Shown in pieces: positions 20,615 to 46,398 of a stretch of 46,398 nt of DNA. A program made the translations under genes and the position numbers. The number at the start of each line of letters is the position of its first letter. The first letter of the stretch is position 1. Under the pieces are notes generated by a model, which worked only from the letters and a program-made list of their open reading frames with translations, made no database searches and was not told where the DNA came from. The stretch is taken from positions 1 through 46,398 of the forward strand of contig JAFPSR010000026.1 in assembly GCA_017413675.1 (NCBI GenBank), read 5' to 3'. Source of the stretch: Clostridia bacterium. GTDB taxonomy: Bacteria > Bacillota_A > Clostridia > Christensenellales > UBA1750.

Positions 20615-20644
20615 TTGCGAAACAAAAGGGGAGCATGTTATAAT
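20615..20644 (+). promoter_or_regulatory. promoter of glnS
   Basis: TTGCGA (20615-20620), 18 bp spacer, TATAAT (20639-20644), about 65 nt before the glnS start. Confidence 0.65.
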
Positions 20645-20708
20645 GATGCAATCTGAAAAGAAGGCTTTTTTCCGCCGGATACCGGCAAAAAAGCAGACGG
20701 AGGCAACC

Positions 20709-22415: not shown

Positions 22416-22445
22416 CCCGGGCGTTATGCAGAAGGAGTCAAACCC

Positions 22446-22727
22446 ATGACGAAAATATTCGAAGTCCTCATGCTGGTCTGCTTCGGCGTGTCCTGGCCGA
22501 TCAACATCCTCAAATCCCTGAGAACCCGTTCCGCCAAAGGAAAGAGCCTGCTCTTCCTGTGCCTGATTTTCGCCGGCTACATTGCCGGGATTATCAACAA
22601 CCTGATCAACGGGGCCAACTATGTCCTGGCCGTCTATATTCTGAACCTGATCATGGTCGGCATCGATATCATCCTGTATTTCCGCAATCTCGCGCTGGAT
22701 AAAAAAGCCGCGCAGGCACAAGATTGA
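22446..22727 (+). CDS. small three-helix membrane protein, SemiSWEET/PQ-loop-like
   Basis: 93 residues with three predicted membrane helices (about 5-26, 34-57, 61-82). The end of helix 1 reads SWPINILKSLRTRSAKGKSL, close to the PQ-loop signature of SemiSWEET sugar transporters (proline, polar residue, K/R-rich loop, then GxS), although the P-Q pair is P-I here. SemiSWEETs act as homodimers that pass small sugars; transport by this protein is an inference. AGAAGGAG precedes the ATG. It lies between glnS and gltX with short gaps, apparently in one operon. Confidence 0.7.
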   Translation: MTKIFEVLMLVCFGVSWPINILKSLRTRSAKGKSLLFLCLIFAGYIAGIINNLINGANYVLAVYILNLIMVGIDIILYFRNLALDKKAAQAQD

Positions 22728-22741
22728 AAGGAGTCCCCATC

Positions 22742-24181
22742 ATGACTGTTCGTACCCGTTTCGCACCCAGCCCGACCGGCTACATGCACCTGGGCAACCT
22801 GCGTTCCGGACTGTATACCTACCTGTTCGCCAAAAAGCACAACGGCACCTTCATCCTCCGGATCGAGGATACCGACCAGGGCCGCTTTGTGGAGGGCGCC
22901 ACGCAGGTGATCTATGACACCCTGCGCGACTGCCATATGCAATGGGACGAAGGTCCCGATATCGGCGGCGATTACGGCCCCTATATCCAGAGCGAACGGA
23001 AGGACCTGTATCTTCCCTACGCACAGCAGCTGGTGGAAAAAGGCGCTGCCTACTACTGCTTCTGCACCCGGGAGGAGATCGAGGAGCGCCGGCAGGCTGC
23101 CGCCGAGCGCGGGGAAACCTTCAAGTATGACAAACACTGCCTGCACCTGACCAAGGAAGAGGTCCAGGCCCGCCTGGATGCCGGTGTCCCCTATGTCATC
23201 CGGCAGAATGTCCCCACCGAAGGCGAATCCGATTTCGATGACCTGGTTTTCGGCCATATCACCGCCGCCAACGATACCCTGGACGACATGGTCCTGATCA
23301 AGGCCGACGGCATGCCCACCTACAACTTCGCCAACGTGGTGGACGACCACCTGATGGGCATCACCCATGTCATGCGCGGGATGGAATACCTGTCCTCCAC
23401 GCCGAAATACAACCTGCTCTACAAGGCGTTCGGCTGGGAAATCCCGAAATATATCCATCTGACCCCGGTCATGCGCGATAAGGAGCATAAACTCTCCAAG
23501 CGCGACGGCGATGCCTATTTCTCCGATTATGTCGACAAGGGCTACCTGAAGGAAGCGCTCGTCAACTACATCGCCCTGCTCGGCTGGAACCCCGGCGATG
23601 ACCGGGAGTTCTTCACCATGCCGGAGCTCATTGAGGCCTTTGATGTCAGCGGGCTGTCCAAGTCCCCCGCCATCTTCGATATCGCCAAGCTGCGCTGGAT
23701 GAATGCCGAATACATCCGCAGGATGGCCCCGGAGGAATTCGACCGGAACGCCGCCCCCTGGTATGAAAAGGCCGGGGTGGCCGGCATGGACCGCGGGATC
23801 CTGTGCAAGATCCTGCAGCCCCGTGTGGAGGTTTTCTCCGAGCTGCCCGATATGGTGGACTTCCTAACCGAGCTGCCGGAATTCACCAATGACCTGTACA
23901 CCCACAAGAAGATGAAGACGAACCCGGAGATCGCCAGGGACGTCCTCACCGAGGTAATCCCCCTTCTTCGCGCGCTCCCCGAATGGACCGAGGAAGCCGT
24001 CCATGACCTGCTCATGGAGCATGCCGCGAAAACCGAACGCAAGAACGGCATGGTCATGTGGCCGGTCCGCATCGCGCTCAGCGGCAAGGCCGTAACCCCC
24101 GGCGGCGCGGTGGAGATCGCCGTGCTCCTCGGGCGCGAGGAAAGCCTGCGCCGGCTGGATGCCGCCCTTCTGAAACTGTAA
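22742..24181 (+). CDS. gltX: glutamate--tRNA ligase
   Basis: 479-residue class I synthetase. N-terminal RFAPSPTGYMHLGN carries the HIGH equivalent (16-19) and KLSKRDGD near residue 249 is the KMSKS loop. The connective peptide holds CFCTREEIEERR, where other GluRS have zinc-binding cysteines. The helical anticodon-binding domain makes up the last 150 residues. ATG 22742 follows GAAAGGAGTCCCCATC; an in-frame ATG at 22724 overlaps the previous gene and has no ribosome site. The gene ends in a clear terminator. Confidence 0.95.
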   Translation: MTVRTRFAPSPTGYMHLGNLRSGLYTYLFAKKHNGTFILRIEDTDQGRFVEGATQVIYDTLRDCHMQWDEGPDIGGDYGPYIQSERKDLYLPYAQQLVEKGAAYYCFCTREEIEERRQAAAERGETFKYDKHCLHLTKEEVQARLDAGVPYVIRQNVPTEGESDFDDLVFGHITAANDTLDDMVLIKADGMPTYNFANVVDDHLMGITHVMRGMEYLSSTPKYNLLYKAFGWEIPKYIHLTPVMRDKEHKLSKRDGDAYFSDYVDKGYLKEALVNYIALLGWNPGDDREFFTMPELIEAFDVSGLSKSPAIFDIAKLRWMNAEYIRRMAPEEFDRNAAPWYEKAGVAGMDRGILCKILQPRVEVFSELPDMVDFLTELPEFTNDLYTHKKMKTNPEIARDVLTEVIPLLRALPEWTEEAVHDLLMEHAAKTERKNGMVMWPVRIALSGKAVTPGGAVEIAVLLGREESLRRLDAALLKL

Positions 24182-27099: not shown

Positions 27100-27310
27100 G
27101 CCGGACGCCGTACGGCAGGTGCCGCGGGGAGAGAAAAACCCCGGCACCGAGGGAAACGCCTGCGATTGGCGTACTAACCCAGTAACCGTGAAGCTGACGA
27201 TCCTGCCAGGGCAGCCATGTGCTGCCGGTCACTGCAGCTGCCCGCCGGGCGCTGTGGGAAGACGGCCGGAGAGGATGAAGCCAAGCCGGGAGACCTGTTG
27301 GCTGCGGGAA
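27100..27310 (+). promoter_or_regulatory. cobalamin riboswitch
   Basis: B12-sensing leader. The B12 box AAGCCGGGAGACCTGTT at 27283-27299 is preceded by GGGAAG and GGATG, and by CACTG at 27230-27234. Further upstream are paired GGTGCC/GGCACC arms and the GGGAA block at 27150-27155. Spacing between GGGAA and CACTG is longer than in textbook examples because extra hairpins are present. The three following genes form a BtuFCD-type importer, the usual target. Boundaries are approximate. Confidence 0.85.
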
Positions 27311-27633
27311 AGCGCGACCTTGCAGCGCGCACTCTTTCCATGTGCCGCCCCTGGGATTGGGCGGCGGCAAAAGGCAGCCACGGCCTGTGCAGCGGAAAAC
27401 TTTTTCTTTTTTCGCATGCCTGTACAGGCTTCTTTTGTGTGTGCCTGTTTTGCCGCCGTCCGTTGGACGGCTGTGCGAAGCGGGCTTTTGTTCCGCTCTT
27501 TTCCGCCGGGTTCCCCCCTTCCAAGGTCACCGGGATCCGCGGGGAAGCCTTTCCGCGGAAAAGCACCGGGAAAGGTCCGTCTTTGCGTCCATCCGCTGTC
27601 CGCGGATCGCTGCAAAGAAACGGAGGAATCCAA
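27311..27633 (+). other. long untranslated expression platform before btuF
   Basis: Over 300 nt between the B12 box and the btuF start. It holds several hairpins: GCCGCCC/GGGCGGC around 27346-27366, GCCGTCC/GGACGGC at 27455-27471, AGCGG/CCGCT followed by CTTTT near 27479-27504, and TCCGCGG/CCGCGGA around 27536-27560. T-rich runs occur near 27402-27415. One of these is presumably the switched terminator or sequestering stem. A longer open frame through here continues into btuF, but it lacks a ribosome site. Confidence 0.55.
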
Positions 27634-28650
27634 ATGACAAAACTGTTCACCAAACTGACCGTAATTCTGCTGTGCCTGATGCTCCTTGCGGGCTGCGCGC
27701 AGCAGGCACCGGCCGCAACCGCGGAACCGACCCAGGCCCCTGCGACCCAGGAGCCGACGGCGGAACCCACCCAGGAACCTTCCCAGGAACCCGTCAAAGA
27801 GACTGTCACGGTGACCGACGGCCTCGGACGCAGTGTGGAAGTTCCCGCTGACTGTGCGCGCATCGTAGTCCTCTCTGCCGCCGAGGTGGAGATCGTCTGC
27901 GAATTAGGCGCGGAAAACCGGCTGGTAGGGCGAGGCACCTACTGCAATTATCCCGAATCTGTCGCCAGCATCCAGGCGGTGGGCTCCGGAAGCGAAACCA
28001 ATCCGGAAGAAATCATCGCCCTGACCCCCGATCTGGTCATCATGAACACCATGGACCAGAGCAAGGATGTTGTGGACCTGCTGGAAAAGAGCGGGATCCC
28101 CTCCATTCTGACCACAGCGACCGATATTGAAGGAGTATATCACTCCATCGAAATCATCGGCAAAGCCCTCTCCCTGGATGACCAGGCTGCCAAGGTGGTC
28201 GAAGCCATGAAGGCCGACTTTGCCAAGGTTCCCAACCTGGGCGAGCTGTTCGGGGAAAACAAGACCATCTACTTTGAGATTTCGCCCCTGGAATGGGGTC
28301 TGTGGAGTGCCGGCGGCGGTACTTTCTATGAGCAGATCGCAGCAGCCATGGGCATGGAAAACCTGTTCAACGATCTGGACAGCTGGGCACAGGTGTCCGA
28401 AGAACAGGTCATCTCCCGGGATCCTGCCGTCATCGTTGCGCTGACCAGCAAGGAAGTCCTGGGGAAGGACCCCGTTGAGGAGATCTGTTCCCGTGAAGGC
28501 TGGAAGAACCTCTCTGCCGTCAAGAACGGACTGGTCGTCTACTACGACGCCGACGCGCTGTCCCGTCCCGGCCCCCGTCTCGGCAAAGCTGCCGCAGGCC
28601 TGGCCGAAATGATCCGTGAGATCGCGGACGCACTGGATAAAGCCGCCTAA
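27634..28650 (+). CDS. btuF: cobalamin-type ABC transporter binding lipoprotein
   Basis: 338 residues. The signal peptide ends MLLAGC, so the protein is lipid-anchored outside the cell. A linker of about 30 residues rich in Pro, Thr, Glu and Gln follows. Then comes the TroA-like two-lobe domain: VTDGLGRSVEVPADCARIVVL, TYCNYP, NPEEIIALTPDLVI, and the C-terminal VVYYDADALSRPGPRLGKAAAGL in two blocks. This is the class III fold for corrinoids, siderophores and haem. The cobalamin leader upstream decides for B12 or a corrinoid. ATG 27634 follows CGGAGGAATCCAA. First gene of a five-gene run to 32049. Confidence 0.9.
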   Translation: MTKLFTKLTVILLCLMLLAGCAQQAPAATAEPTQAPATQEPTAEPTQEPSQEPVKETVTVTDGLGRSVEVPADCARIVVLSAAEVEIVCELGAENRLVGRGTYCNYPESVASIQAVGSGSETNPEEIIALTPDLVIMNTMDQSKDVVDLLEKSGIPSILTTATDIEGVYHSIEIIGKALSLDDQAAKVVEAMKADFAKVPNLGELFGENKTIYFEISPLEWGLWSAGGGTFYEQIAAAMGMENLFNDLDSWAQVSEEQVISRDPAVIVALTSKEVLGKDPVEEICSREGWKNLSAVKNGLVVYYDADALSRPGPRLGKAAAGLAEMIREIADALDKAA

Positions 28651-35596: not shown

Positions 35597-36820
35597 ATGT
35601 TTGCTGCTTTGCTCGCGGATGACCTGACCGGCGCCATGGATGCCGGGGTCCAGTGGACCCGTTCCGTACCGGATGCCGCCGTCGTATGGACCCTGCCGCT
35701 CCCGGAAAACCGGCCCGCCCTGGTCCTGACTTCGGAAAGCCGGAACCTGCCTGCCGCGGAAGCCGCCGCCCGGGTGCGCAGCGCGTATGAAGCGCTCCTT
35801 TCCGGCGGATACCGCCTGGTGTATAAGAAAACGGACTCCACCATGCGCGGGCATATCGGGACGGAAATCCGGACCCTGCTCTCTTTCGGGAAACACCGCT
35901 TTGCCCTGCTCTGCCCGGCCCTCCCTGCCGGAGGCCGCAGCGTCAAAAACGGGATCCTGTATGTCGGCGGGGAACCGCTGCTTTCCTCGGATATCGCGAA
36001 AGATCCCTATTCCCGCATCACTTGCAGCAGCATCCCCGAGCTCCTTGTCCGGGACGCGGATCTTTCCGCAGCCGTCTTCCCCTGTGACGAAACCCTGCCG
36101 GGTGCCCTGCGTTCCTTTACCGGGGATGTCGCCGTTGTGGATGCCGAAACGGAAGAGGACCTCGCTTTTGTGGCCTCCTGCCTGGACGATTCCATCCTGC
36201 CCTGCGGTTCCGCCGGGCTGTTCGGCGCCATCTGCCGCCTGCGGCAGGAACCGGCCCGGCCCGTCCCCGCCGGGACCGGAGCCGGCCCTCTCCCGCGCCT
36301 TTTGACCCTGTGCGGGTCCCCCGCCCTGAAAAGCCGGGAACAGATGCAGGCTGCGGCCAATGCCGGCTTCCTCCTCCGTTCCTTGACAGAATCCTGCGCA
36401 GCGTCTACTCTGAAAGAGTGCCGGCTGGCCCTCGGGAAAGGAAACAGTGTCATCCTGGATGCAGCCGGCAGCACCAAGGAGGAACTGTCCCTGCTCTATG
36501 CGGATGACGCCCGCGGCCTGCAAAAGGCCGGAGCCCGTGTCCAGGCCCTTCTTCGGGAAGCAGCCCTGCAATTGGCGGGAAGCGCCGACGGGATCTGCGT
36601 ATTCGGCGGCGACAGTGCCCTGAGCATCCTGAGCACGCTGCGTGCCGACGGCATTCTCCTTCGGGGGGAAGCCCAGCCGCTCGTCCCCTGGGGCACGCTC
36701 CTCGGCGGACCGAACGAAGGCCTTTTCTTCTCCACCAAAGCCGGCGGCCTGGGAAACACGCAGGTGATCCCCGACGTCCGCCTGGCCCTGTCCCGTCTGT
36801 TATGTTCCCGCAAGGGATGA
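35597..36820 (+). CDS. four-carbon acid sugar kinase, DUF1537 family
   Basis: 407 residues. N-terminal substrate domain: ALLADDLTGAMDAGVQ and VYKKTDSTMRGHIGTEI near residue 75. C-terminal nucleotide domain: CGSPALKSREQ, ICVFGGDSALS near 335 and LFFSTKAGGLG near 375. This family (DtnK/OtnK) phosphorylates D-threonate, D-erythronate or related keto-acids at C4, giving the substrate of PdxA2 or an aldolase. AGGAGGAATCAAGAC precedes the ATG. Probably the first gene of a plus-strand run to thuA. The precise acid is not readable from sequence. Confidence 0.9.
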   Translation: MFAALLADDLTGAMDAGVQWTRSVPDAAVVWTLPLPENRPALVLTSESRNLPAAEAAARVRSAYEALLSGGYRLVYKKTDSTMRGHIGTEIRTLLSFGKHRFALLCPALPAGGRSVKNGILYVGGEPLLSSDIAKDPYSRITCSSIPELLVRDADLSAAVFPCDETLPGALRSFTGDVAVVDAETEEDLAFVASCLDDSILPCGSAGLFGAICRLRQEPARPVPAGTGAGPLPRLLTLCGSPALKSREQMQAAANAGFLLRSLTESCAASTLKECRLALGKGNSVILDAAGSTKEELSLLYADDARGLQKAGARVQALLREAALQLAGSADGICVFGGDSALSILSTLRADGILLRGEAQPLVPWGTLLGGPNEGLFFSTKAGGLGNTQVIPDVRLALSRLLCSRKG

Positions 36821-36850
36821 ATATGAATCTGCTTTCCGTAGAAAGCGTAT

Positions 36851-36865
36851 GCGCCGAAACGGCGC
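36851..36865 (+). repeat. inverted repeat before the LarA-like gene
   Basis: GCGCCG, AAA, CGGCGC: perfect 6-3-6 hairpin 16 nt before the start codon, just upstream of AAGGAG. It could modulate translation or bind a regulator. Confidence 0.5.
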
Positions 36866-36881
36866 AGAAGGAGAAACTCTT

Positions 36882-38165
36882 ATGATGGATCTGAATGCCG
36901 AAATCCTCGCCCTGATGGACAGTATCCAACTGCCGAAGATGGTCCGTGTCCGCCAGAAGATGTATAGTGAACATATCGAGCCTGCCGACCTGCCCGGCGT
37001 AATCGCGGATCGGCTCAGCCAGCCGAAGTTTTCCAATACATTCCGCGCCGGCGCCCGCATCGCCATTACTGCCGGCAGCCGCGGGGTTGCAAATATCCCG
37101 GTGATTCTGAAAGCTGTTGCCGATTTCCTCAAAACGAAGGGCGCCTATCCGTTCATCGTCCCGGCCATGGGCAGCCACGGCGGCGCAACCGCCGAAGGCC
37201 AGAAGAAACTGCTGGCCGGCTACGGGATCACGGAAGAATCCATCGGCGTGCCGATCCTCTCTTCCATGGAAGTCAAACAGGTGGGGACCACCTGTGAAGG
37301 CCACCCGGTCTATATCGACAAAAATGCCGCCGAAGCGGACGGGATCGTCCTGGTCGGCCGCATAAAGCCGCATACCGACTTCCAGGGCCCCTATGAGAGC
37401 GGCCTGATGAAGATGATGACCATCGGGCTGGGCAAACGCCAGGGCGCGGATACCTGCCATGAGGAAGGGTTCGCCCATATGGCCCACCTGGTCCCCCTGT
37501 TCGGGAATGTCATCCTGCAGAATGCCCCGGTCATCAGCGGGATCGGCCTGATCGAGAACGCTTATGACCAGACGGCGGAAGTGCATGCCCTGCTGCCTGC
37601 GGAAATCCCGGATGAGGAACCCAAGCTCCTGAACCGCGCCCGCAGCATTATGGCCCGGATCCTGATCCCGGAAAGCGACGTCCTGGTCGTGGACCGGATC
37701 GGCAAGGATATCAGCGGCGACGGGATGGACCCGAACATCAGCGGCACCTTTATCCCCCCGCTCCAGGGCGGACACAAGGCCCAGCGGACCGTTGTCCTGG
37801 ACCTGACCGACGCAACGCACGGCGCCGCACTGGGGATTGGCTGCGCGGATGTGACCACCCGCCGGCTGTTTGACAAGATTGATTACAGTGCCACCTGCGT
37901 CAATGCCATCACCTGCACGGTCCTGCAGTTCGTCAAAATCCCGATCGTCATGCCGAGCGATGAAAAAGCCCTGCAGATCGCGGTCAGGACCTGTACCCTG
38001 ATTGACAAGAAAAACCCGAAGATCGTCCGGATCCGCGATACCATGCGGGTCGGCGAGATTGAGATTTCCGAAGCGCTCCTGCCCGAAGCCCTCCAGAATC
38101 CGGACCTCGAAGTCCTGGACGATCCCAAGCCCTGGGCTTTCGATGCCGACGGCAACCTCTGGTAA
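36882..38165 (+). CDS. LarA-superfamily (DUF2088) nickel-pincer isomerase homologue
   Basis: 427 residues, the usual LarA length. AMGSHGGATAEGQ holds H99 and GRIKPHTDF holds H164, spaced like the two catalytic histidines of lactate racemase. ESGLMKMMTIGLGKRQGADTCH supplies a lysine and histidine where LarA binds the nickel pincer cofactor, though spacing differs (K177 or K185, H193). LarA homologues racemise or epimerise 2-hydroxy acids; in this locus C2-epimerisation of a four-carbon acid sugar is an inference. ATG 36882 follows AAGGAG; in-frame codons further upstream lack a ribosome site. The cofactor genes larB, larC and larE are not in the window. Confidence 0.78.
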   Translation: MMDLNAEILALMDSIQLPKMVRVRQKMYSEHIEPADLPGVIADRLSQPKFSNTFRAGARIAITAGSRGVANIPVILKAVADFLKTKGAYPFIVPAMGSHGGATAEGQKKLLAGYGITEESIGVPILSSMEVKQVGTTCEGHPVYIDKNAAEADGIVLVGRIKPHTDFQGPYESGLMKMMTIGLGKRQGADTCHEEGFAHMAHLVPLFGNVILQNAPVISGIGLIENAYDQTAEVHALLPAEIPDEEPKLLNRARSIMARILIPESDVLVVDRIGKDISGDGMDPNISGTFIPPLQGGHKAQRTVVLDLTDATHGAALGIGCADVTTRRLFDKIDYSATCVNAITCTVLQFVKIPIVMPSDEKALQIAVRTCTLIDKKNPKIVRIRDTMRVGEIEISEALLPEALQNPDLEVLDDPKPWAFDADGNLW

Positions 38166-38200
38166 TCCCGCACACCGCCGGCCAACCCTGCTTTCCCGCT

Positions 38201-38219
38201 CCTGCCCTGCGCGGGCAGG
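38201..38219 (+). other. intra-operon hairpin
   Basis: CCTGCCC / GGGCAGG stem with 5-base loop in the 76 bp gap, no T run. Possibly an RNA-stability element or weak attenuator. Confidence 0.4.
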
Positions 38220-38241
38220 TCTATGTCAGAAAGGAGTCCCT

Positions 38242-39114
38242 ATGAGAATCGGTTGTTATTCCCCGGAACTGGTTTCTCTGCGCGGCAGCACCCCCTCCCC
38301 GGAGGAATCTCTCAAGGCACTGGAAACCCTCTTTCAGAAATGTGAAAAATACGGCTATCAGGCCATGCAGTTCAACTTCCTCTCCGCGGTAGGGGAAGAA
38401 ATGCCCGACGATTTCCCGCCGGAGGTCCTTACCCACACCGCCCGCCTGGCCAGGGCCGCCGATGTGCAGCTGATCTCCGTCAACGGCACCTTCAACATGG
38501 TCCATCCCGTGGAAGCGGACCGTCAGGACGGCATCCGCAGGTTCGGCCTGATGGCACAGGCTGCCGACGAGCTGAAGATCCCGATCATCACCCTTTGCAC
38601 GGGCTCCCGGAGCCTGACCGGCATGTGGTCCGTTTCCCCCGAGAACCGGACGGAGGAAAGCTATCAGCTGCTCCTGAAAACAACGGAAGCCATCCTCCCC
38701 TATGCCGAAAAATACAACCTGACCCTGGGGGTCGAGATTGAGGCTAGCAACGTCATCTATACCGCCGAACGTGCCCAGCGGTACCTGAAGGACATCGCCT
38801 CCCCGCACATGGGGATCATCCTGGACTGCGCCAACCTCTTCTATGCCGGTACCGGCAAGGTGGAAAATGTCCGCCCCTTCATGCAGGACGCCTTCGACCG
38901 GCTCGGCGATAAGATCTGCCTGGCCCACGGCAAGGATATCCGGCCCGGGGACAAACCGATGTTTGCCAACCCCACCGAAGGCATGGTGGATTATCCCTTC
39001 TTCCGTACGCTTCTGGACAGCATCGGCTATCAGGGCCCCATGGTCCTGCACGGCTTCCATGAGGAAGGACCCATGCCGGCGGCCATCGCCAAAATCCGCG
39101 AAATCTTCGGCTGA
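38242..39114 (+). CDS. sugar phosphate isomerase/epimerase-like TIM-barrel protein
   Basis: 290 residues of the AP-endonuclease-2/xylose-isomerase-like family (IolE, Hyi, OtnI relatives). Metal-binding positions are seen on successive strands: GVEIEASN near residue 165 (Glu), MGIILDCANLFYAG near 192 (Asp), LAHGKDI near 230 (His), and VLHGFHEEGP near the end. Such enzymes interconvert ketoses and aldoses or epimerise sugars. The neighbours (DUF1537 kinase, PdxA, LarA homologue) suggest a four-carbon acid-sugar substrate. AAAGGAGTCCCT precedes ATG 38242. Confidence 0.85.
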   Translation: MRIGCYSPELVSLRGSTPSPEESLKALETLFQKCEKYGYQAMQFNFLSAVGEEMPDDFPPEVLTHTARLARAADVQLISVNGTFNMVHPVEADRQDGIRRFGLMAQAADELKIPIITLCTGSRSLTGMWSVSPENRTEESYQLLLKTTEAILPYAEKYNLTLGVEIEASNVIYTAERAQRYLKDIASPHMGIILDCANLFYAGTGKVENVRPFMQDAFDRLGDKICLAHGKDIRPGDKPMFANPTEGMVDYPFFRTLLDSIGYQGPMVLHGFHEEGPMPAAIAKIREIFG

Positions 39115-39134
39115 GAACGGAAGGAATCCACACC

Positions 39135-39674
39135 ATGAAATGGATATTCGCCTCTGACCTGCACGGCAATGCTTCCGCCTGTGCGCAGCTCCTCGCCCGC
39201 TTTGAAGCGGAAGGAGCCGATAAACTGATCCTGCTGGGGGATCTTTTATACCACGGTCCCCGGAATCCGCTGCCCGACGGGTACGCGCCCGCGGATGTTG
39301 CCACCCAATTGAAGCCCTACAGCGACAGGATCTTCTGTGTCCGTGGTAACTGTGACAGCGAGGTGGACCAGGCCGTCCTCTCCTTCCCGATGCTGGAAGG
39401 CAGCGGGATCCTGTATGACGGGAAACGCCTGTTCTATCTTTATCACGGACATCAGAACATCGGGGAACTTCCCCTGCCGAACGTGGACGTCCTGGTACAG
39501 GGACATACCCATGTCGCGGTTCTGAACACGGATACGCGTCCCGCGCGTCTGAATCCTGGATCCGTCGGCATTCCCAAGGATGGGACACGCGGCACTTATG
39601 CGCTGCTGGACGGGGATCAGCTCAGCATCCGTGATTTGGTCGACGGACATGTTCTCTTTTCCGCCGTCCTATAA
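39135..39674 (+). CDS. yfcE: YfcE-like metallophosphodiesterase
   Basis: 179 residues, a complete calcineurin-like phosphoesterase: SDLHGN (8-13), LLGDLLYHGPRNPLP near 33, RGNCDSEVD near 70, HGH near 105, and VQGHTH near 119. GPRNPLPDGY is specific to the YfcE group, which hydrolyses phosphodiesters in vitro; the natural substrate is not settled. It lies 20 nt after the isomerase gene and 38 nt before thuA, so it belongs to the same run. Its role in sugar-acid use is unclear; it may remove phosphate from an intermediate. Confidence 0.92.
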   Translation: MKWIFASDLHGNASACAQLLARFEAEGADKLILLGDLLYHGPRNPLPDGYAPADVATQLKPYSDRIFCVRGNCDSEVDQAVLSFPMLEGSGILYDGKRLFYLYHGHQNIGELPLPNVDVLVQGHTHVAVLNTDTRPARLNPGSVGIPKDGTRGTYALLDGDQLSIRDLVDGHVLFSAVL

Positions 39675-39712
39675 AGATTCTATCCATGTCTATCTGAAAG
39701 CGAGGTTTATCT

Positions 39713-40375
39713 ATGCTGAACATTTTGCTGCTCTGTGATGATAAGTGGCATCCCGGTGAAGTGTTTGAGCGCGGGCTCGTACGTCCCCTTTCCCAGAAGG
39801 GTGTTCATTTTGATGTTGTAAAAGCGCCCCGGGATATCCTGACTAAAGAAATGATCCGTACGTTCGACGTGATCATCAACGCCAGAGGACATTCCTACAG
39901 CGCCGCCAATCCGGCTGCCTGGTTCTCCGAAGGGGAAACGGATGTCATGCCTGAAGATCTGGCCGATTATGTCAGGGAAGGCGGTGGTTTCCTCGCCCTC
40001 CACGGCGGCAACACCTATAAGACGGACCGGCTTCCCACCATGACGGAGCTGATCGGGAACGATTTCATCGGTCATCCCAAGATGTGCCCCATTCGGGCTT
40101 TCCCTGTCGGGAGCCATCCGATCACACAGGGAATCGAACCGTGCATGATCCGTGACGAACACTATATGCTCGACATTCACTGCGAGGATGCGGACGTTTT
40201 CTATAAATCCACTTCCGATACCGAAGCAGGCACACAGATCGCGGGGTATACCCGGAATTACGGGGAAGGCCGCATTTGCGTATTGACCCCGGGCCATACC
40301 CAGGCAGTTCTCGAAACAGAAGCCTATGCGAAAGTCCTGTATAATGCCATCCTGTGGTGCGCAAAACAAATCTGA
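39713..40375 (+). CDS. ThuA-domain protein (trehalose-utilisation family)
   Basis: 220 residues with a class I glutamine-amidotransferase-like Rossmann fold. Typical blocks are DDKWHPGEVFERGL, ADYVREGGGFLALHGG near residue 84, VGSHPITQGIE, DEHYMLD near 145, and GRICVLTPGHTQAVLET before the last helix. ThuA proteins occur in many sugar-degradation loci; several relatives act on keto-sugar derivatives, but the reaction here is unknown. The last six codons (WCAKQI and stop) recur at 46218-46238. Codons near the 3' end (GCA, CAA) are A-ending, unlike the GC-ending choices of neighbouring genes. A terminator follows. Confidence 0.85.
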   Translation: MLNILLLCDDKWHPGEVFERGLVRPLSQKGVHFDVVKAPRDILTKEMIRTFDVIINARGHSYSAANPAAWFSEGETDVMPEDLADYVREGGGFLALHGGNTYKTDRLPTMTELIGNDFIGHPKMCPIRAFPVGSHPITQGIEPCMIRDEHYMLDIHCEDADVFYKSTSDTEAGTQIAGYTRNYGEGRICVLTPGHTQAVLETEAYAKVLYNAILWCAKQI

Positions 40376-40380
40376 TTCTG
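40355..40380 (+). repeat. thuA 3'-end direct repeat, left copy
   Basis: Covers the last six codons, stop and five following bases of thuA. It matches 46218-46244 with two substitutions (both third-codon-position and synonymous) and one extra T in the right copy. The two copies bound an A+T-richer block of about 5.8 kb. Confidence 0.82.
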
Positions 40381-40402
40381 TCAATCATGGGGCCCCCTAT
40401 TG

Positions 40403-40432
40403 ACCAGTATGCTTCCGCATGCTGGTTTTTTT
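40403..40432 (+). terminator. intrinsic terminator after thuA
   Basis: ACCAGTATGC (40403-40412), loop TTCC, GCATGCTGGT (40417-40426), then six T. Its architecture resembles the terminator after the right thuA copy (46261-46292). Confidence 0.92.
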
Positions 40433-40630
40433 CTGCCCGTCTTTGAGAAAGAATCTTTTTTCAGAAAAAATGAAAGCAGATGCTTGATTCTTCAAAACAG
40501 ATAATATACAATCAAGTTGGTAAAAATAAACAAATATTTTCAATGTATATTGTTCACTTCTACCATTAATTATGAAAGTATCATGATTTCTGTTGGAATC
40601 TCTGTATCTTTCCAGGGAGGAGGAGTATAA
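40433..40630 (+). other. AT-rich leader before the exported-protein cluster
   Basis: About 200 bases, much richer in A+T than the DNA to the left. It must hold the promoter of the following three-gene cluster, but several TATA-like boxes (near 40503 and 40543) compete and no pair with good spacing stands out. It ends in GGGAGGAGGAG, a strong ribosome site 7 nt before the start. Confidence 0.4.
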
Positions 40631-43108
40631 ATGACAGAAAACAACACACAGCATACAAAGCATGTTCCGGATTCTGCCCCGAAGCATAAAAAGAGAATAC
40701 TTCCCCTCCGAATCATTTTTCTTATCCTGCTGGGCGCAGGGATTATTCTCTGGGTTTGGAAAGTCTGCGTTCCCTATTTTCGATTCGTTTCGGCAAATAT
40801 CCACTTTATGTATGGAGAAATGGAAGAAGCATACGAAGCCTACAACAAGATCAGTGATTATAAAGACTGCCGTAAGCGCGCTTTTGCCAGTCTGTTCCAA
40901 ATACAGACAAAACAGTTTGAATTTGCCACCATATATCCCGGGCAGACAATCCTCTGGGGACAATTTGAACAGAATAATGATATTTCAGATGGGATGGAAC
41001 CGATTGAATGGGTTATCCTGGATTCAAACGGAGAATACATCCGCCTGATCAGCAAAGAGATCCTGGATAATCAACCATACAGTACAGAAGGTTCGGAGAA
41101 CAAGTGGGAAACCAGCTCTCTTCGGAAGTGGTTGAATGAAACCTTTTATACTTCTGCATTTGGCCCTGATTTCCAGAAGATGATTACCGCTGATCCGGTC
41201 ACCGGTGATTATGTCTCTATCCTCTCCGCAGAAAATAATCTTTATGAAAAAGACAGCGCGTGGAACTTTTTTGATACTTATGCAGATACCGAATGCGTTG
41301 CAACCGAATATGCCAGAGCAGGCCTTAGCCCAAATAGCCGTGGTTACTGTGACTGGTGGCTGCGGCCCAGTCAACAAAACACGGACAAGGGGGAAATCAT
41401 CTGGAAAGACGGATACATCCTCGACAATACCAATCCGTCTTATCTTTCAGTTGTTGCCAATGCAGGTGTTCGTCCTGTTATCTGGATCAAATTGGATTAT
41501 GCTCCGATATACAGTTCCCCATGGATTGAAGAGCCTGCTTCCGAGGCTCCGGACATTGTCCCGTCCCCCTATGTAGATAAAGCCTGGCATAGGTATCTGC
41601 GTGCAGCCATAACCGACAGCCCGTTGATCGTGGAAGGCTCCGTCCAATTCGTAAGAAAAGCTCTCCTCCCTTCTGATTCCGGAGGCAGGGATATTCCATG
41701 CAGAGATTACACCTTTTCCGTGCTCTCCATACTCTACGGCAGTTATGAGAAAGAAGAAATCTGTGTCCTGGTTCCGGGGAATGCTTCCGTCTATGATTTC
41801 GATATGGGGAAACGATATATACTTTTCCTGAATACAGAGGATCAATATACCAATCCATCTGATCCGACTGCAGATAATCTGTATCAGGCATACCGCATTC
41901 GCTGTCGTTTGTTTGACGACCAAATCAGTCATCTCATCGTCGGTGGATATAATACAGATTATTTTCATGACAACTCTCGCCGCAGAAGGTTGATGACCCG
42001 AAATGACATGCTGGATTTTATCCATGAGATAAAAGGCTGGATGGAACCGGAACAAAATCCGCAGGAACCGGAACAAAATCCACAAGAGCCGGAACCGCCT
42101 CAACAGGAACAGGATCCTGATATGGTCGAAGTCCTGGCTCCTGCTCCGGAAGGCACTGCTCCATTTGTCTCGATTAATGCCGATAATGTCGTGAGTTATC
42201 TGAAGGCCGCACTGACTGACAGCTCCATGGTTGCAGAAGGAATCATCGGATCAAAACGATCTTATCAACCGCATACCTATCCTGATCAGAATAATCCTGT
42301 CCAATGGAATATCTACACATTCAAAATACATCATGTCTTTGCAGGACATCGTGTTGATGATCTGTATCCTCTGCAGGATCAAATAGATCTGCTGGTTCCG
42401 GGCGATAATCCTGCATTGGATTATGAGGTCGGAGGAAGGTATATTGTTGTTGTGAACTCTCCGGATTCCGTCTTCTATCCGTCTGATACACTTATTCTGT
42501 ATCAGGGCTATCAGATCCGCTGTAAACTCAGTGTCGGTGATTCCAACGTCATCCATCACCTGCAGATCGGTGACTTTGCAGCGGATTATCCGAAAACCAA
42601 GCAGGAATTCGAAGCCCTGATTGAAGAAACCGTAGGTTTGGGCGATCGATATTATAATCCAAAGGATTATTATATCCATGAAGATTGGTCCATAGAAAGT
42701 GTTGTCCGGCGCGCCCCGTTAATTGCCCGGGTAACAGTCAGGAATATTATAGGTGAACAGAATCCGGAGACATGGATCTGTCTTTGTACCATACGGGTGC
42801 CAGCCGACGTTTGGGAAGGAGATATTCCGGCTGTCCCTGATCAGGAATTCAAAATCCGGGTTCCCCGGGGAAGTGTGGCGGTAGGGCAGACATATGTGGT
42901 CTGTATCCAGAGGCATGTCGATCAGATCGACAGGGAGGGAAATCCGCTCTGCCTGCAGCCGTATTCCATAGTCGATATACTCGGAAAACCTGCTATCATA
43001 TATGATACCGTCTATGAACCCGCTGCGAAAAATTACTGGGTTTTCCACATAAATGATAAGTGGGCAGTGGATAAAATACAGGCTGCCCTGAAAGCCAGGC
43101 GTCAGTGA
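40631..43108 (+). CDS. large membrane-anchored protein: DUF6273-like domain plus repeated module
   Basis: 825 residues; no known family for the whole. One membrane helix at 23-45 after a basic leader puts the rest outside the cell. A short helical repeat (57-90, YGEMEEAYEAYNKISDYKDC) is followed by a DUF6273-like region at about 106-289 (ILWGQFEQNNDISDGMEPIEW, LRKWLNETFYTSAF, GYCDWWLRP, ANAGVRPVIWI). Then come two clear copies of a module of about 145 residues (322-470 and 522-670) and a degenerate third (685-790). Each copy has D-S-x-L/M-V-x-E-G, a Y-x-F core, then G-x-R-Y-I-V/L. The same module occurs in the two following genes. A Pro/Glu/Gln linker joins copies 1 and 2. Function unknown. 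Confidence 0.8.
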   Translation: MTENNTQHTKHVPDSAPKHKKRILPLRIIFLILLGAGIILWVWKVCVPYFRFVSANIHFMYGEMEEAYEAYNKISDYKDCRKRAFASLFQIQTKQFEFATIYPGQTILWGQFEQNNDISDGMEPIEWVILDSNGEYIRLISKEILDNQPYSTEGSENKWETSSLRKWLNETFYTSAFGPDFQKMITADPVTGDYVSILSAENNLYEKDSAWNFFDTYADTECVATEYARAGLSPNSRGYCDWWLRPSQQNTDKGEIIWKDGYILDNTNPSYLSVVANAGVRPVIWIKLDYAPIYSSPWIEEPASEAPDIVPSPYVDKAWHRYLRAAITDSPLIVEGSVQFVRKALLPSDSGGRDIPCRDYTFSVLSILYGSYEKEEICVLVPGNASVYDFDMGKRYILFLNTEDQYTNPSDPTADNLYQAYRIRCRLFDDQISHLIVGGYNTDYFHDNSRRRRLMTRNDMLDFIHEIKGWMEPEQNPQEPEQNPQEPEPPQQEQDPDMVEVLAPAPEGTAPFVSINADNVVSYLKAALTDSSMVAEGIIGSKRSYQPHTYPDQNNPVQWNIYTFKIHHVFAGHRVDDLYPLQDQIDLLVPGDNPALDYEVGGRYIVVVNSPDSVFYPSDTLILYQGYQIRCKLSVGDSNVIHHLQIGDFAADYPKTKQEFEALIEETVGLGDRYYNPKDYYIHEDWSIESVVRRAPLIARVTVRNIIGEQNPETWICLCTIRVPADVWEGDIPAVPDQEFKIRVPRGSVAVGQTYVVCIQRHVDQIDREGNPLCLQPYSIVDILGKPAIIYDTVYEPAAKNYWVFHINDKWAVDKIQAALKARRQ
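42043..42084 (+). repeat. two tandem 21-bp units coding a Pro/Glu/Gln linker
   Basis: 42043-42063 and 42064-42084 differ at one base; each encodes EPEQNPQ. A degenerate third unit follows. They form the linker between module copies 1 and 2 and could vary in number by slippage. Confidence 0.85.
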
Positions 43109-43147
43109 CCGTTTTTTTCGTCCTGCCATTTTCGAAGGGAGGAAACG

Positions 43148-43750
43148 TTGTTGAAAAGATTGATCCCGCTCCTGTTTTCGGCGCTACTGCTTCTTCTGTC
43201 TGCCTGCGGAAACTCCTCTGCCGGTCAGCCGGCGCCTGTATCCCCACTGCCGACTGCATGTGCTCCGGAAAGTGTTCCATACCATTACTATCCCGGAACC
43301 ACGATTGAAATGCATTTTGAACAGGCTCTTGGCTATCCTCTGGTTCTGGAAGGGACGATTCTCTCCACAAGTCCTGTGCCGGAAGAAGATCACGCCCAAT
43401 ACTACGTCTCCGGATACTACTATGATCTCGAAATCAATAAAATCTATCGGGGCGAATACAGCCAGTCTGTCATCCGGTTTACTTCCACCCGGGAAAAACC
43501 GGCAGATCTTATTGTCGGCAAACGGTATATCGTGTTCCTGCGCGCGGACGAACAAGGAATTTCCCCGAACAGAAAAATATGTTACACAGATCATGTTCCG
43601 CAAATATGCATCGAAATAGACAGCAATAATCCCTCCCTGATTTCCCGGTTCCTGGCAGACAACACACTGCTGGACATCCGGAAAAAGAAGGATTTTCTCA
43701 GAATCCTGGAAGAAGAATACCGCATCTATGCCCCTTTACAGCAACGGTAA
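43148..43750 (+). CDS. lipoprotein with one copy of the shared module
   Basis: 200 residues. The signal peptide ends LLLLSAC (Cys20), so it is lipid-anchored. Residues about 58-190 match the module of the previous protein: YPLVLEGTILS, YYDLEINKIYRGEYSQSVIRF in two blocks, and VGKRYIVFLRADE, then a charged helical end (IRKKKDFLRILEEEYRIY). No ATG fits; the start is one of two adjacent TTG codons (43148 or 43151) after GGGAGGAAACG. It lies 39 nt downstream of the large gene and is probably co-transcribed. Function unknown. Confidence 0.78.
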   Translation: MLKRLIPLLFSALLLLLSACGNSSAGQPAPVSPLPTACAPESVPYHYYPGTTIEMHFEQALGYPLVLEGTILSTSPVPEEDHAQYYVSGYYYDLEINKIYRGEYSQSVIRFTSTREKPADLIVGKRYIVFLRADEQGISPNRKICYTDHVPQICIEIDSNNPSLISRFLADNTLLDIRKKKDFLRILEEEYRIYAPLQQR

Positions 43751-43809
43751 TGCATCTGCAATCCTCCCGGTTTATCCCTGATCCCTGTCCGGTATGAAAG
43801 GCTGCGAAA

Positions 43810-44799
43810 ATGAAAGCTTTCCTGTTTTGGCTCCTGATCTCGATCCTGATTACCTCTGCACCGTCCGATGATCTGCCCTCCCGGGCTGCTGCCGTATCGG
43901 CAGAATCCGTCTTCAGCACAGACACAATATACGGCAGTTTCCTGGGACCCGACACCCGGCCTGCAGAAGCCTCCTTTACGACAAGCATTGTGGATCCTGC
44001 CGCATTCATCAATGATTCCAATTATCACCGTACCCTTCATTCCATGCTGTCCCGCAGCTCCCTGGTTGTGGAAGGTACGGTCCGGTCAGTCGAGGTTCTG
44101 AAAGAAAGGGCCGTGAATAATACTTTTGCAAATATGACATGGTATCTTCTGGAAGATCTGTCCGTTATCGCGGGCAGGTATGAGCAGGATGTCATTCCCG
44201 TAATCGTGGATGATGTTCTCGGTGAATTTCCTTCGTTCACTGTCGGACAGCGCTGTATCATGATCCTGCGGTCTAATGATTCCGTTTTCTATCCTGACGA
44301 GGAACAGATATGGGAATCGGAATACGTCCGGATCGAAGTGGATGCTGCGCATCCTTCCCGCCTCTCCGACTGCCGGCTGTACGGTGTCGAAATCCCCGTA
44401 CATACAAAGAAAGCTTTCACCAGGCTTGTCCGGAAGGCCATCGGTCTGCCGAAGGACTATTATTCCGCGGCAACCCGGTATGTCCATTCTGATCGGGAAT
44501 CGGCAATTCGGAGCGGGTCGGACCTGATCGCCGAAATCTCTGTTACGGAAATCAAGGAGCACAAAAAGGGACAGCTTGCCGAATGCACCTGTACCGTGAA
44601 AAAGGCCCTGAAAGGAAAAAAATACGCAAAGGAAGGGCAAACTGTCCGTATATGGATTCCCGCCGGCAGCATGGAACTCAATCGTTCCTACCAGATATAC
44701 TGTCAGAGACAGGTCCTGTTCCTGGATATTTTCCGCCGTCCGGTTCACAGTGATGCTTTCCAGATCACGTCCAAAAAGAACAGTATCATTCCTCTGTAA
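43810..44799 (+). CDS. exported protein with two copies of the shared module
   Basis: 329 residues. A hydrophobic N-terminus (FLFWLLISILITSA) looks like a signal peptide without a lipobox. Module copy 1 spans about 76-215 (SSLVVEGTVRSVEV, LLEDLSVIAGRYEQDVIPV, VGQRCIMILRSNDSVFYPDE). Copy 2 spans about 230-310 (SGSDLIAEISVTEI, CTVKKALKGKKY, RSYQIYCQRQ). The junction VRKAIGLPKDYY...RYVHSDRESAI parallels ETVGLGDRYY...YIHEDWSIESV of the 825-residue protein, so it is a shortened paralogue of that protein's C-terminal half. The ribosome site (GAAAGG) is weak. A terminator hairpin follows. Function unknown. Confidence 0.78.
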   Translation: MKAFLFWLLISILITSAPSDDLPSRAAAVSAESVFSTDTIYGSFLGPDTRPAEASFTTSIVDPAAFINDSNYHRTLHSMLSRSSLVVEGTVRSVEVLKERAVNNTFANMTWYLLEDLSVIAGRYEQDVIPVIVDDVLGEFPSFTVGQRCIMILRSNDSVFYPDEEQIWESEYVRIEVDAAHPSRLSDCRLYGVEIPVHTKKAFTRLVRKAIGLPKDYYSAATRYVHSDRESAIRSGSDLIAEISVTEIKEHKKGQLAECTCTVKKALKGKKYAKEGQTVRIWIPAGSMELNRSYQIYCQRQVLFLDIFRRPVHSDAFQITSKKNSIIPL

Positions 44800-44831
44800 T
44801 TCTGCTTTATGCTGAACATCGGCCTAAAGCA

Positions 44832-44867
44832 GGAAGCCGGTACATAATCCGTGCCGGCTTCCCTTTT
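44832..44867 (+). terminator. terminator after the exported-protein cluster
   Basis: GGAAGCCGG (44832-44840) pairs with CCGGCTTCC (44854-44862), then CTTTT. It sits between convergent genes; the minus strand lacks a good T run. Confidence 0.82.
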
Positions 44868-46005
44868 ATCCATCTTTTTTCTTCTGATACTGATTCAAAG
44901 CCATCCATTCCGCTTTCAGTTTGCTTCTGCGGTTCACCAGTCCGCGGATCACGCGGTAAAACGGCAGGAACGGCAACAGAACCGGATACCTGATAAACAC
45001 CGGGAACGCGGAGCGTACGGTATCCAGGGGCAGGAATATCCTTCCCAATATGTACCGAACCTTCTGCAACGGTCCGTTCCCATACCGCTCCATGCGGTTT
45101 TTCACACGGTTGCCTATCGTCCCGTACGTTCCGGAAGACAGGATATAATCCAGCATCTCCCGGTCGTTTTCCCCGATCTCTCCTTCACCGAACAAATGGT
45201 CCGCCAGATCCCGGTTCCGTTTCTCGAACTCTGTGAGCCCCAGTTTTTCCAGTTCCCCTTCTACATATTCCCGGTCCAGCGTGTCCCCCTTTTTCATATT
45301 GTACACATAGATGTCCAGCAGGGACCGCAGCCCGGTACCGCCTTCCGAATAATGTTTATATTCATGGGCGATCATATACACGTAGAAATCTTCTTCCCGG
45401 AAGTGAAACCCGAATTCTTTTCCCGGGTCCCGTACCAGCCTGGACTTGACATCCCGGTAATAGTCCGCAAGTGTCTTTTCCTGGCTTTGGTCAAACAGCT
45501 TCCTGTGCATTTCAAAACTGCAGACAGGCTTCTTATAGTAATGGTCATGGACCCCCCTCCCGTTATGGGGATCGGTCTCCATGCCCAGGCTTTCCATCAG
45601 GGGCAGGATATCTTCCGTGCGGGATTCATTATACAGGATATCGTTGTCCGCCATCTGCCGCATCCCGATTCTCGGATACAGGTCCTGCAGGACCGATCCT
45701 TTCATCGGCATATACCAGATACCTGCCTTCTCCAGCGCATCCAGGATCCGCGCCCGTTCCAGGTCCATGGCTGCTGTCTTGCGGACCGCTTTCCCCAGCG
45801 CCTGGGTGAATTCCTCATTCCTGACCCCGGCACTTTCCAGGGCTATCGCGGTAATCCCCTTCAGAAGATGGCGTTCTGCGCTCTGATATACCGCGGAGAG
45901 ATCCATTCCGTCAATCCTGTCCCGGTCCGGGATTTTTCCGTTGACCGCGCACGCGCACAGCCAGGCGATATCCGAAACGGCACGGCGATATTCCTCATTC
46001 GTCAT
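44866..46005 (-). CDS. nucleotidyltransferase-family protein (NTP_transf_5-like)
   Basis: 379 residues. IWYMPMKGSVLQDLYPRIGMRQMADNDIL in two blocks near residue 107 gives the K-G...R-x-x-x-D-x-D/N pattern of this family: a conserved lysine-glycine, then MADND where others have R-DIDIL. HDHYYKK and SFEMHRKLF (EMH) follow, also typical. The C-terminal third is basic. Relatives occur beside peptide-export or polysaccharide ABC transporters; the reaction is unknown. ATG 46005 is chosen because it overlaps the stop of the upstream ABC transporter remnant (11 nt), the expected operon layout. Since that transporter is truncated, the native promoter has probably been lost. Confidence 0.78.
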   Translation of the reverse strand: MTNEEYRRAVSDIAWLCACAVNGKIPDRDRIDGMDLSAVYQSAERHLLKGITAIALESAGVRNEEFTQALGKAVRKTAAMDLERARILDALEKAGIWYMPMKGSVLQDLYPRIGMRQMADNDILYNESRTEDILPLMESLGMETDPHNGRGVHDHYYKKPVCSFEMHRKLFDQSQEKTLADYYRDVKSRLVRDPGKEFGFHFREEDFYVYMIAHEYKHYSEGGTGLRSLLDIYVYNMKKGDTLDREYVEGELEKLGLTEFEKRNRDLADHLFGEGEIGENDREMLDYILSSGTYGTIGNRVKNRMERYGNGPLQKVRYILGRIFLPLDTVRSAFPVFIRYPVLLPFLPFYRVIRGLVNRRSKLKAEWMALNQYQKKKDG

Positions 46006-46219
46006 GACAAACCACCCCGTTCCCTGTAAATTCCAGCACCTTGTCGCAAATCGACAGGACCGCCGGGCGGTGCGTAACGATGACAATGGTCTTATCCGTC
46101 ATATTCCGCAGGTTTTCCAGCAGTCGTTTTTCCGTTTCCGTGTCCAGCGTGCTGGTGGCTTCATCCATCAGGAGGACCGGCCTGCCGGAGAAAACAGCCC
46201 TGGCAATCGCCAGCCGCTG
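45995..46219 (-). pseudogene. ABC transporter 3' remnant (ATPase C-terminal end)
   Basis: About 75 codons that match only the end of an exporter-type ABC ATPase: QRLAIARAVFSGRP, LLMDEATSTLDTETEKRLLENL (Walker B and D-loop, two blocks), then the H-loop IVIVTHRPAVLSICD. Walker A, the Q-loop, the LSGGQ signature and the whole membrane domain are missing. Homology stops at the QR of the signature region (about 46219); beyond it the minus-strand frame reads through the antisense of thuA 3' DNA and a terminator. It cannot be functional as an ATPase. Confidence 0.82.
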
Positions 46220-46238
46220 GTGCGCCAAACAGATCTGA
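46218..46238 (+). pseudogene. displaced thuA 3' end (last six codons and stop)
   Basis: Reads TGG TGC GCC AAA CAG ATC TGA, that is WCAKQI-stop, identical in protein to the end of the thuA gene at 40355-40375 but with GCC for GCA and CAG for CAA. It is on the same strand and followed by a terminator. The preceding DNA belongs to the ABC remnant, with a 2-3 bp overlap at the junction. Confidence 0.8.
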
Positions 46239-46244
46239 TTTCTG
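46218..46244 (+). repeat. thuA 3'-end direct repeat, right copy
   Basis: Counterpart of 40355-40380. Identity continues past the stop codon (TGATT then CTG) apart from one inserted T. The short stretch before it (GCCAGCCGCTGG against GCCATCCTGTGG) is also partly similar, which may be microhomology at the breakpoint. Confidence 0.8.
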
Positions 46245-46258
46245 CAGCGGACAAAAAT

Positions 46259-46292
46259 TTCCGGCATGCGGTTCCCCGCATGCCGGTTTTTT
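46259..46292 (+). terminator. intrinsic terminator after the right thuA copy
   Basis: CCGGCATGCGG (46261-46271), loop TTCC, CCGCATGCCGG (46276-46286), then six T. No intact plus-strand gene lies upstream, so it must once have served the displaced thuA end. Confidence 0.92.
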
Positions 46293-46345
46293 CTTCCAAA
46301 AACCAACCCGGGAGGTGCTGTGCAGAAAAAAGCAAAGAAAAAGTC

Positions 46346-46374
46346 TTGCTTTTCCCTTTTCGATATTATAGAAT
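46346..46374 (+). promoter_or_regulatory. promoter for a gene beyond the window
   Basis: TTGCTT (46346-46351), 17 bp spacer, TAGAAT (46369-46374). The gene it serves begins after 46398. No gene is seen between 46245 and 46398. Confidence 0.6.
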
Positions 46375-46398
46375 GGCATTGGTGAAAACAAACAAATA

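What the first reader, a model, noticed from the sequence alone, without database searches (positions are those of the whole stretch)
40355..46244. A+T-richer block bounded by two copies of the thuA 3' end
The last six codons, stop and a few following bases of thuA (40355-40380) recur at 46218-46244 on the same strand. The copies differ by two synonymous third-position changes and one indel, and each is followed by a TTCC-loop intrinsic terminator. The right copy uses GCC and CAG, like the GC-rich flanking genes; the left uses GCA and CAA, like the A+T-richer DNA between. This is what remains when a foreign segment enters at the 3' end of a gene, supplies its own 3' end and displaces the native one. 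The block carries three novel exported-protein genes, a nucleotidyltransferase-family gene and a transporter stub, but no integrase. It may be a minimal island, a gene-end insertion by homologous recombination, or the scar of a larger rearrangement.
Basis: partly seen in the sequence, partly recalled or inferred. Interest (0 to 1): 0.78.

Follow-up and report, generated by a model that had tools for sequence, protein, structure and literature searches.

The report
Broken exporter gene fused to thuA end
The repeated gene ending that looked like the border of a foreign DNA island is better read as a scar at the very end of an assembled contig, where a broken exporter gene is joined to the tail of a second, diverged copy of the thuA gene end; it is a fairly ordinary rearrangement or possibly an assembly error.

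Summary
The repeat is real and longer than reported. The whole last 181 bases (46218-46398) are a diverged, colinear copy of 40355-40536: thuA's last six codons and stop, terminator, promoter region and leader (score 89, maximum of 2,000 shuffles 47; 73% identity outside gaps). The island reading is weakly supported at best. The homology runs on past the stop codon into the supposed block, so the copies are not short borders. GC does drop just after thuA, but thuA's GC3 shows no 3' drop, and on the right the NTase and ABC genes are thuA-like (GC3 0.67-0.69). The one sharp discontinuity is at 46217/46218: an ABC-exporter gene, full length (549-561 aa) beside the NTase in 3 of 3 relatives fetched, keeps its last 74 codons and is fused, with 2 bp overlap, to the thuA-type tail. 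The contig ends 181 bases later. I favour an end-joining deletion into a second thuA unit; a chimeric contig end and a one-sided homologous insertion remain open. No relative close enough for the empty-site test was found. Side result: the exported proteins share a repeat predicted to have the netrin/TIMP-like (NTR) fold.

The parts
39713..40375 (+). thuA (ThuA-domain protein, 220 aa)
   Evidence: PF06283 E 4.5e-22
40355..40536 (+). left copy: last six codons and stop of thuA, terminator, promoter region, leader
   Evidence: alignment to 46218-46398, score 89 vs shuffle maximum 47
40402..40427 (+). left intrinsic terminator-like stem-loop
40631..43108 (+). exp1: DUF6273 protein, membrane-anchor-like N terminus (by eye), two NTR-like repeats and one second-type repeat
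   Evidence: PF19789 E 3.8e-12; repeats; fold; relative P0123
43148..43750 (+). exp2: putative lipoprotein (LSAC motif, by eye) with one NTR-like repeat
43810..44799 (+). exp3: signal-like N terminus (by eye), one NTR-like repeat and one second-type repeat; no relative but itself found
44832..44862 (.). terminator-like stem-loop between convergent exp3 and NTase genes
44866..46005 (-). NTase gene (NTP_transf_5 family)
   Evidence: PF14907 E 1.4e-38; 48-50% relatives in G304, G118, G107
45995..46219 (-). truncated ABC-exporter gene: last 74 codons only, starting at Q of the QRLAIARA motif
   Evidence: aligned to 549-561 aa relatives
46217..46219 (.). junction: ABC homology ends, thuA homology begins; 2 bp (TG) overlap
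46218..46398 (+). right copy: end of a second thuA-type gene, terminator, promoter region, leader, running to the contig end
46261..46286 (+). right intrinsic terminator-like stem-loop

Best explanation
The right copy is the stump of a second, diverged unit consisting of the thuA 3' end, terminator, promoter and probably a further gene beyond the contig end. It was joined to the inside of an ABC-exporter gene by an end-joining type (illegitimate) event with about 2 bp of microhomology, most simply a deletion that removed the first ~87% of the exporter gene and everything between it and the second unit downstream. The left copy is the native end of thuA running into its normal downstream genes; nothing was inserted there. 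Shown: homology of the two tails, truncation of the exporter gene, near-blunt junction in the contig. Inferred: that the junction is in the genome, that the second unit lay nearby on the same strand, and that the event was a deletion.
For: Tail-to-tail homology over 181 bases beginning abruptly at 46218. The exporter gene is full length (549-561 aa) beside the NTase in 3 of 3 fetched relatives, with homology stopping at the Q codon 46217-46219. Only TG fits both sides at the junction, relatives' exporter DNA being the proxy for the lost DNA. The joined DNA is homologous to DNA 5.9 kb away on the same strand, which a random chimeric read would rarely give (inference). thuA's GC3 shows no break towards its 3' end. 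NTase and exp3 are convergent around a terminator-like stem-loop, as in undisturbed DNA.
Against: 0 of 57 thuA loci carry a second thuA nearby (49 of them 10 kb or longer, all distant). The junction lies only 181 bases from the contig end, which by chance has about 0.8% probability (both ends counted, my arithmetic) and fits an artefact or a graph fork as well. GC falls right after thuA's stop, as an insertion there would also give. No relative close enough to show the unbroken state was found. Part of the promoter similarity may be a shared promoter type: a similar stretch lies before a tRNA-Thr gene in G304.
Confidence: 0.5

Rival explanations
1. Chimeric contig end: the last ~180 bases come from another molecule (a related species' or paralogous thuA locus) and were joined to the exporter gene during library preparation or assembly.
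For: Junction 181 bases from the end of a 46,398-base contig, about one read length; 2-bp junction inside a gene that is intact in the 3 relatives fetched; a 79% identical thuA exists on another public contig (P0002), so related thuA loci exist.
Against: A random partner would hardly be homologous to DNA 5.9 kb away on the same strand. The tail shares at most 12 exact bases with the rest of the contig, so it is not a simple k-mer misjoin inside this contig. A real junction whose tail also occurs in another context would end a contig in about the same place (graph fork).
Confidence: 0.27
2. One-sided homologous insertion (homology-facilitated illegitimate recombination): donor DNA carrying thuA-exp1-exp2-exp3-NTase-ABC recombined homologously in thuA and joined illegitimately at its other end to the recipient's last thuA codons; the right tail is the native one.
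For: One event gives both thuA ends, the same orientation, the near-blunt junction, the GC drop after thuA and the more GC-rich right tail (intergenic GC 0.43 vs 0.35). The process is described in competent bacteria and in E. coli conjugation (PMC3240628, abstract and passages seen).
Against: Those passages give 3-10 bp microhomology in most cases and a deletion about as large as the insertion, on average 1 kb each; here the overlap is 2 bp and, by the colinear right tail, little but part of thuA seems lost for a 5.9 kb gain. No mosaic break is visible in thuA's GC3 (0.52, 0.64, 0.75, 0.61, 0.59).
Confidence: 0.17
3. Site-specific gene-end island that integrates into the thuA 3' end and restores it.
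For: Two 3' ends of one gene in direct orientation, A+T-richer DNA between, with the GC drop just after thuA.
Against: No recombinase gene seen in the block, no tRNA, homology far longer and more diverged than an attachment site and extending into the island side, no composition switch at the right border, right border inside an operon gene found intact in relatives.
Confidence: 0.03

Closest known systems
Illegitimate (end-joining, microhomology) deletion junctions between diverged duplicates (recalled)
   Same: Near-blunt join, truncated gene, second copy of a gene end in direct orientation
   Different: The second unit is not seen in full and no relative shows the unbroken state
Homology-facilitated illegitimate recombination
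   Same: Could give one homologous side and one illegitimate side
   Different: 2 bp instead of 3-10 bp microhomology; large gain without visible matching loss
Gene-end integrative islands (integrase-borne; recalled)
   Same: Duplicate 3' end of a gene
   Different: No integrase seen, no short identical core, homology runs into the island side
ABC exporter + NTP_transf_5 gene pair of genomes G304, G118, G107
   Same: Exporter frame and NTase frame adjacent and slightly overlapping
   Different: Exporter cut to 74 codons here
Netrin/TIMP-like (NTR) domain
   Different: 14% identity; no Pfam model found it at E 0.01 or better in four repeats; role unknown

Membership tests
Site-specific gene-end island | Recombinase gene in the element | tested here: not met
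   The block's five genes/pieces scanned with Pfam and PHROGs; none is a recombinase. DNA beyond the contig end is unseen.
Site-specific gene-end island | Short identical direct repeats as borders | tested here: not met
   Homology is at least 181 bases at 73% with gaps, going into the island side
Site-specific gene-end island | Composition switches at the borders | tested here: inconclusive
   Left: GC 0.556 to 0.382 right after thuA, though not inside thuA. Right: no switch; GC3 of NTase/ABC 0.67-0.69 vs thuA 0.62
Site-specific gene-end island | Empty site in a relative | not testable with these tools
   Best thuA in named genomes 60%; none of 57 thuA loci shares any of eight tested window neighbours at E 1e-5
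Tandem duplication with deletion | Second full thuA in relatives at this place | tested here: inconclusive
   0 of 57 thuA loci have a second hit, but all are distant (32-60% identity) and share none of the eight tested neighbours with the window
Tandem duplication with deletion | Second thuA-type unit in the same genome | tested here: inconclusive
   Tail present at 46218-46398, but at the contig end; whole genome not held
Homology-facilitated illegitimate recombination | 3-10 bp microhomology at the illegitimate side (most cases) | tested here: inconclusive
   2 bp overlap, with relatives' sequence as proxy for the lost exporter DNA
Homology-facilitated illegitimate recombination | Deletion of recipient DNA of similar size | tested here: inconclusive
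   No recipient reference; the colinear right tail suggests little loss
ABC exporter gene | Transmembrane part and complete ATPase | tested here: not met
   Only 74 C-terminal codons remain; relatives have 549-561 aa
NTR (netrin/TIMP-like) domain, repeat type one | NTR fold | tested here: met

The most novel reading that the evidence does not exclude
The locus is polymorphic in a living population: a unit of thuA end, strong promoter and NTR-protein gene is present more than once and recombines illegitimately, so that the contig ended where a rearranged and an unrearranged path fork; exported NTR-like proteins would be spread and reshuffled by such gene-end joins without any mobile element.
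Probability: 0.1. Interest if true: 0.45.

Novelty: new member of a known kind. Interest (0 to 1): 0.2.

Why it matters
It shows that a duplicated gene 3' end next to a composition shift need not mark an island: the copy can be the stump of a second unit at an illegitimate junction or at a chimeric contig end. The NTR-like exported proteins, for which a word-based search of 5.8 billion proteins found one long relative for exp1 and none for exp3, are a small separate lead.

Tried and rejected
Island at the thuA 3' end: rejected as main reading; the GC drop after thuA is the point in its favour. Mobile origin of exp1: tblastn against 72,556 plasmids gave 2 records and against 50,697 phage records 1, all partial at 27-31% identity, covering 17-26% of the query around the DUF6273 region; not evidence for mobility. 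PHROGs: exp1 matched one family of unknown function weakly (E 1.1e-4), the ABC piece matched ABC-transporter families. Own genome: not held. Closest genomes: GlnRS best 65% (351 of 396 matching), HisRS best 60% (5 of 23) and 59% (20 of 250), so no close relative in what was drawn from larger groups. thuA in 10 of 396 order members at E 1e-25 or better, best 49%. NTase relatives: 15 of 297, 0 of 11 in the family of G044; I fetched the surroundings of the best 3 of those 15. The exp1 relative P0123 starts inside the protein and so is cut off on the thuA side; it was not found in 396 + 38 genomes. The right tail in 22 genomes: 1 match, promoter-like, before a tRNA-Thr gene. Viral contigs with thuA and NTase: none; leader pattern there: 3 exact matches, whose surroundings show no resemblance by eye; in 99 loci none.

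Own errors: the ABC query used was out of frame, so its rows there are not used; redid the comparison in frame. The three thuA GC3 figures were out of frame and are replaced. Paper searches on contig chimerism (listings only) gave nothing that I rely on.

Full report
What is there. The sequence TGGTGCGC..TGA that ends thuA (40355-40375) recurs at 46218-46238 with 19 of 21 bases identical. The part after the stop codon scores 65 (maximum 45) and the promoter part alone 57 (maximum 40). In a scan of the whole window, both strands, the next best match to the right 3' end scored 29 against 43 for the thuA end, and to the right promoter part 35 against 57; the terminator alone is not above background. 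The leader pattern TTGGTRAAAAYAAACAAATA, drawn from the two copies themselves, matches only these two places at up to 3 mismatches, where 0.01 is expected by chance. Left of 46218 the homology stops at once (score 12, shuffle median 14).

A caution on the promoter part: one of 22 genomes has an 84% match to 37 bases of it, upstream of a tRNA-Thr gene, so part of that similarity may reflect a shared strong-promoter type. The 3' end and the leader do not depend on this.

The right border. The DNA left of 46218 is the end of an ABC-exporter gene on the minus strand. Its reading frame matches ABC proteins only from about QRLAIARA on. In the three genomes with the best NTase relatives (G304, G118, G107; 3 fetched of 15 matching among 297 searched) an exporter frame of 561, 555 and 549 codons lies directly before the NTase frame and overlaps it slightly. 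They read LSEGQ(T/M)QR(L/V)AIARA. In the window the codons before QRLAIARA are replaced by thuA-type sequence; only TG (46218-46219) fits both. So about 87% of the exporter gene is missing and the join is near-blunt.

The left border. thuA GC3 in five 44-codon steps is 0.52, 0.64, 0.75, 0.61, 0.59, so nothing changes inside the gene towards its end. Right after the stop codon GC does fall, from 0.556 to 0.382 per 500 bases; this is the intergenic region and the start of exp1. Gene GC3 runs 0.77-0.78 (36849, 38239), 0.67 (39135), 0.62 (thuA), 0.46, 0.53, 0.58 (exported genes), 0.67 (NTase), 0.69 (ABC). The A+T-richer part is thus the three exported-protein genes and their upstream region; it starts at the left copy but does not end at the right one.

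Kinship. No whole genome is held. The nearest genomes by GlnRS and HisRS are 65% and 60% identical among those drawn; the nearest thuA in named genomes is 60%. None of 57 thuA loci carries any of eight tested neighbours (four upstream genes, three exported genes, NTase) or a second thuA (49 loci are 10 kb or longer, 29 are 19 kb or longer). The empty-site test was therefore not possible.

What it means. The sharp discontinuity is the exporter/thuA-tail join, 181 bases from the contig end. It is either a genomic rearrangement or an artefact. For a genomic event speaks that the joined piece is homologous to DNA 5.9 kb away on the same strand; for an artefact speaks its position at the contig end, though a real junction leading into DNA that also exists in another context would end a contig there as well. 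Among genomic events I prefer a deletion into a second thuA unit downstream, because the promoter and leader similarity suggests a second copy of the whole unit; a one-sided homologous insertion is possible, and would explain the GC drop after thuA, but departs from the published pattern (3-10 bp microhomology, matching deletion; PMC3240628, abstract and introduction passages seen). A site-specific island is unlikely.

Verdict. Observation real and larger than stated; island interpretation not well supported; ordinary kind of scar or artefact; low interest, with a small side lead in the NTR-like exported proteins.

Noticed in passing
40631-44799: Three exported-type proteins share repeats; one repeat type is predicted to have the netrin/TIMP-like fold, with no clear Pfam match.
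   Followed up: partly
27150-27296: Cobalamin riboswitch (Rfam RF00174, 55.8 bits) at the start of a frame for a BtuF-like substrate-binding protein (27217-28650; specific-family matches below the curated cut-offs).
   Followed up: no
20643-24181: A glutamine-tRNA ligase gene is followed by a second class I Glu/Gln-type tRNA synthetase gene (22724-24181).
   Followed up: no
35597-40375: Row of genes with SBD_N/NBD_C (sugar-kinase-like, name recalled), Lar_N, TIM-barrel, metallophosphoesterase and ThuA domains; the first four were not found around any of 57 thuA loci.
   Followed up: partly
46338-46374; L103 around 1500-1537 (reverse strand): The promoter-like stretch of the right tail resembles the stretch before a tRNA-Thr gene in genome G304, a hint at a shared strong-promoter type in this lineage.
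   Followed up: partly
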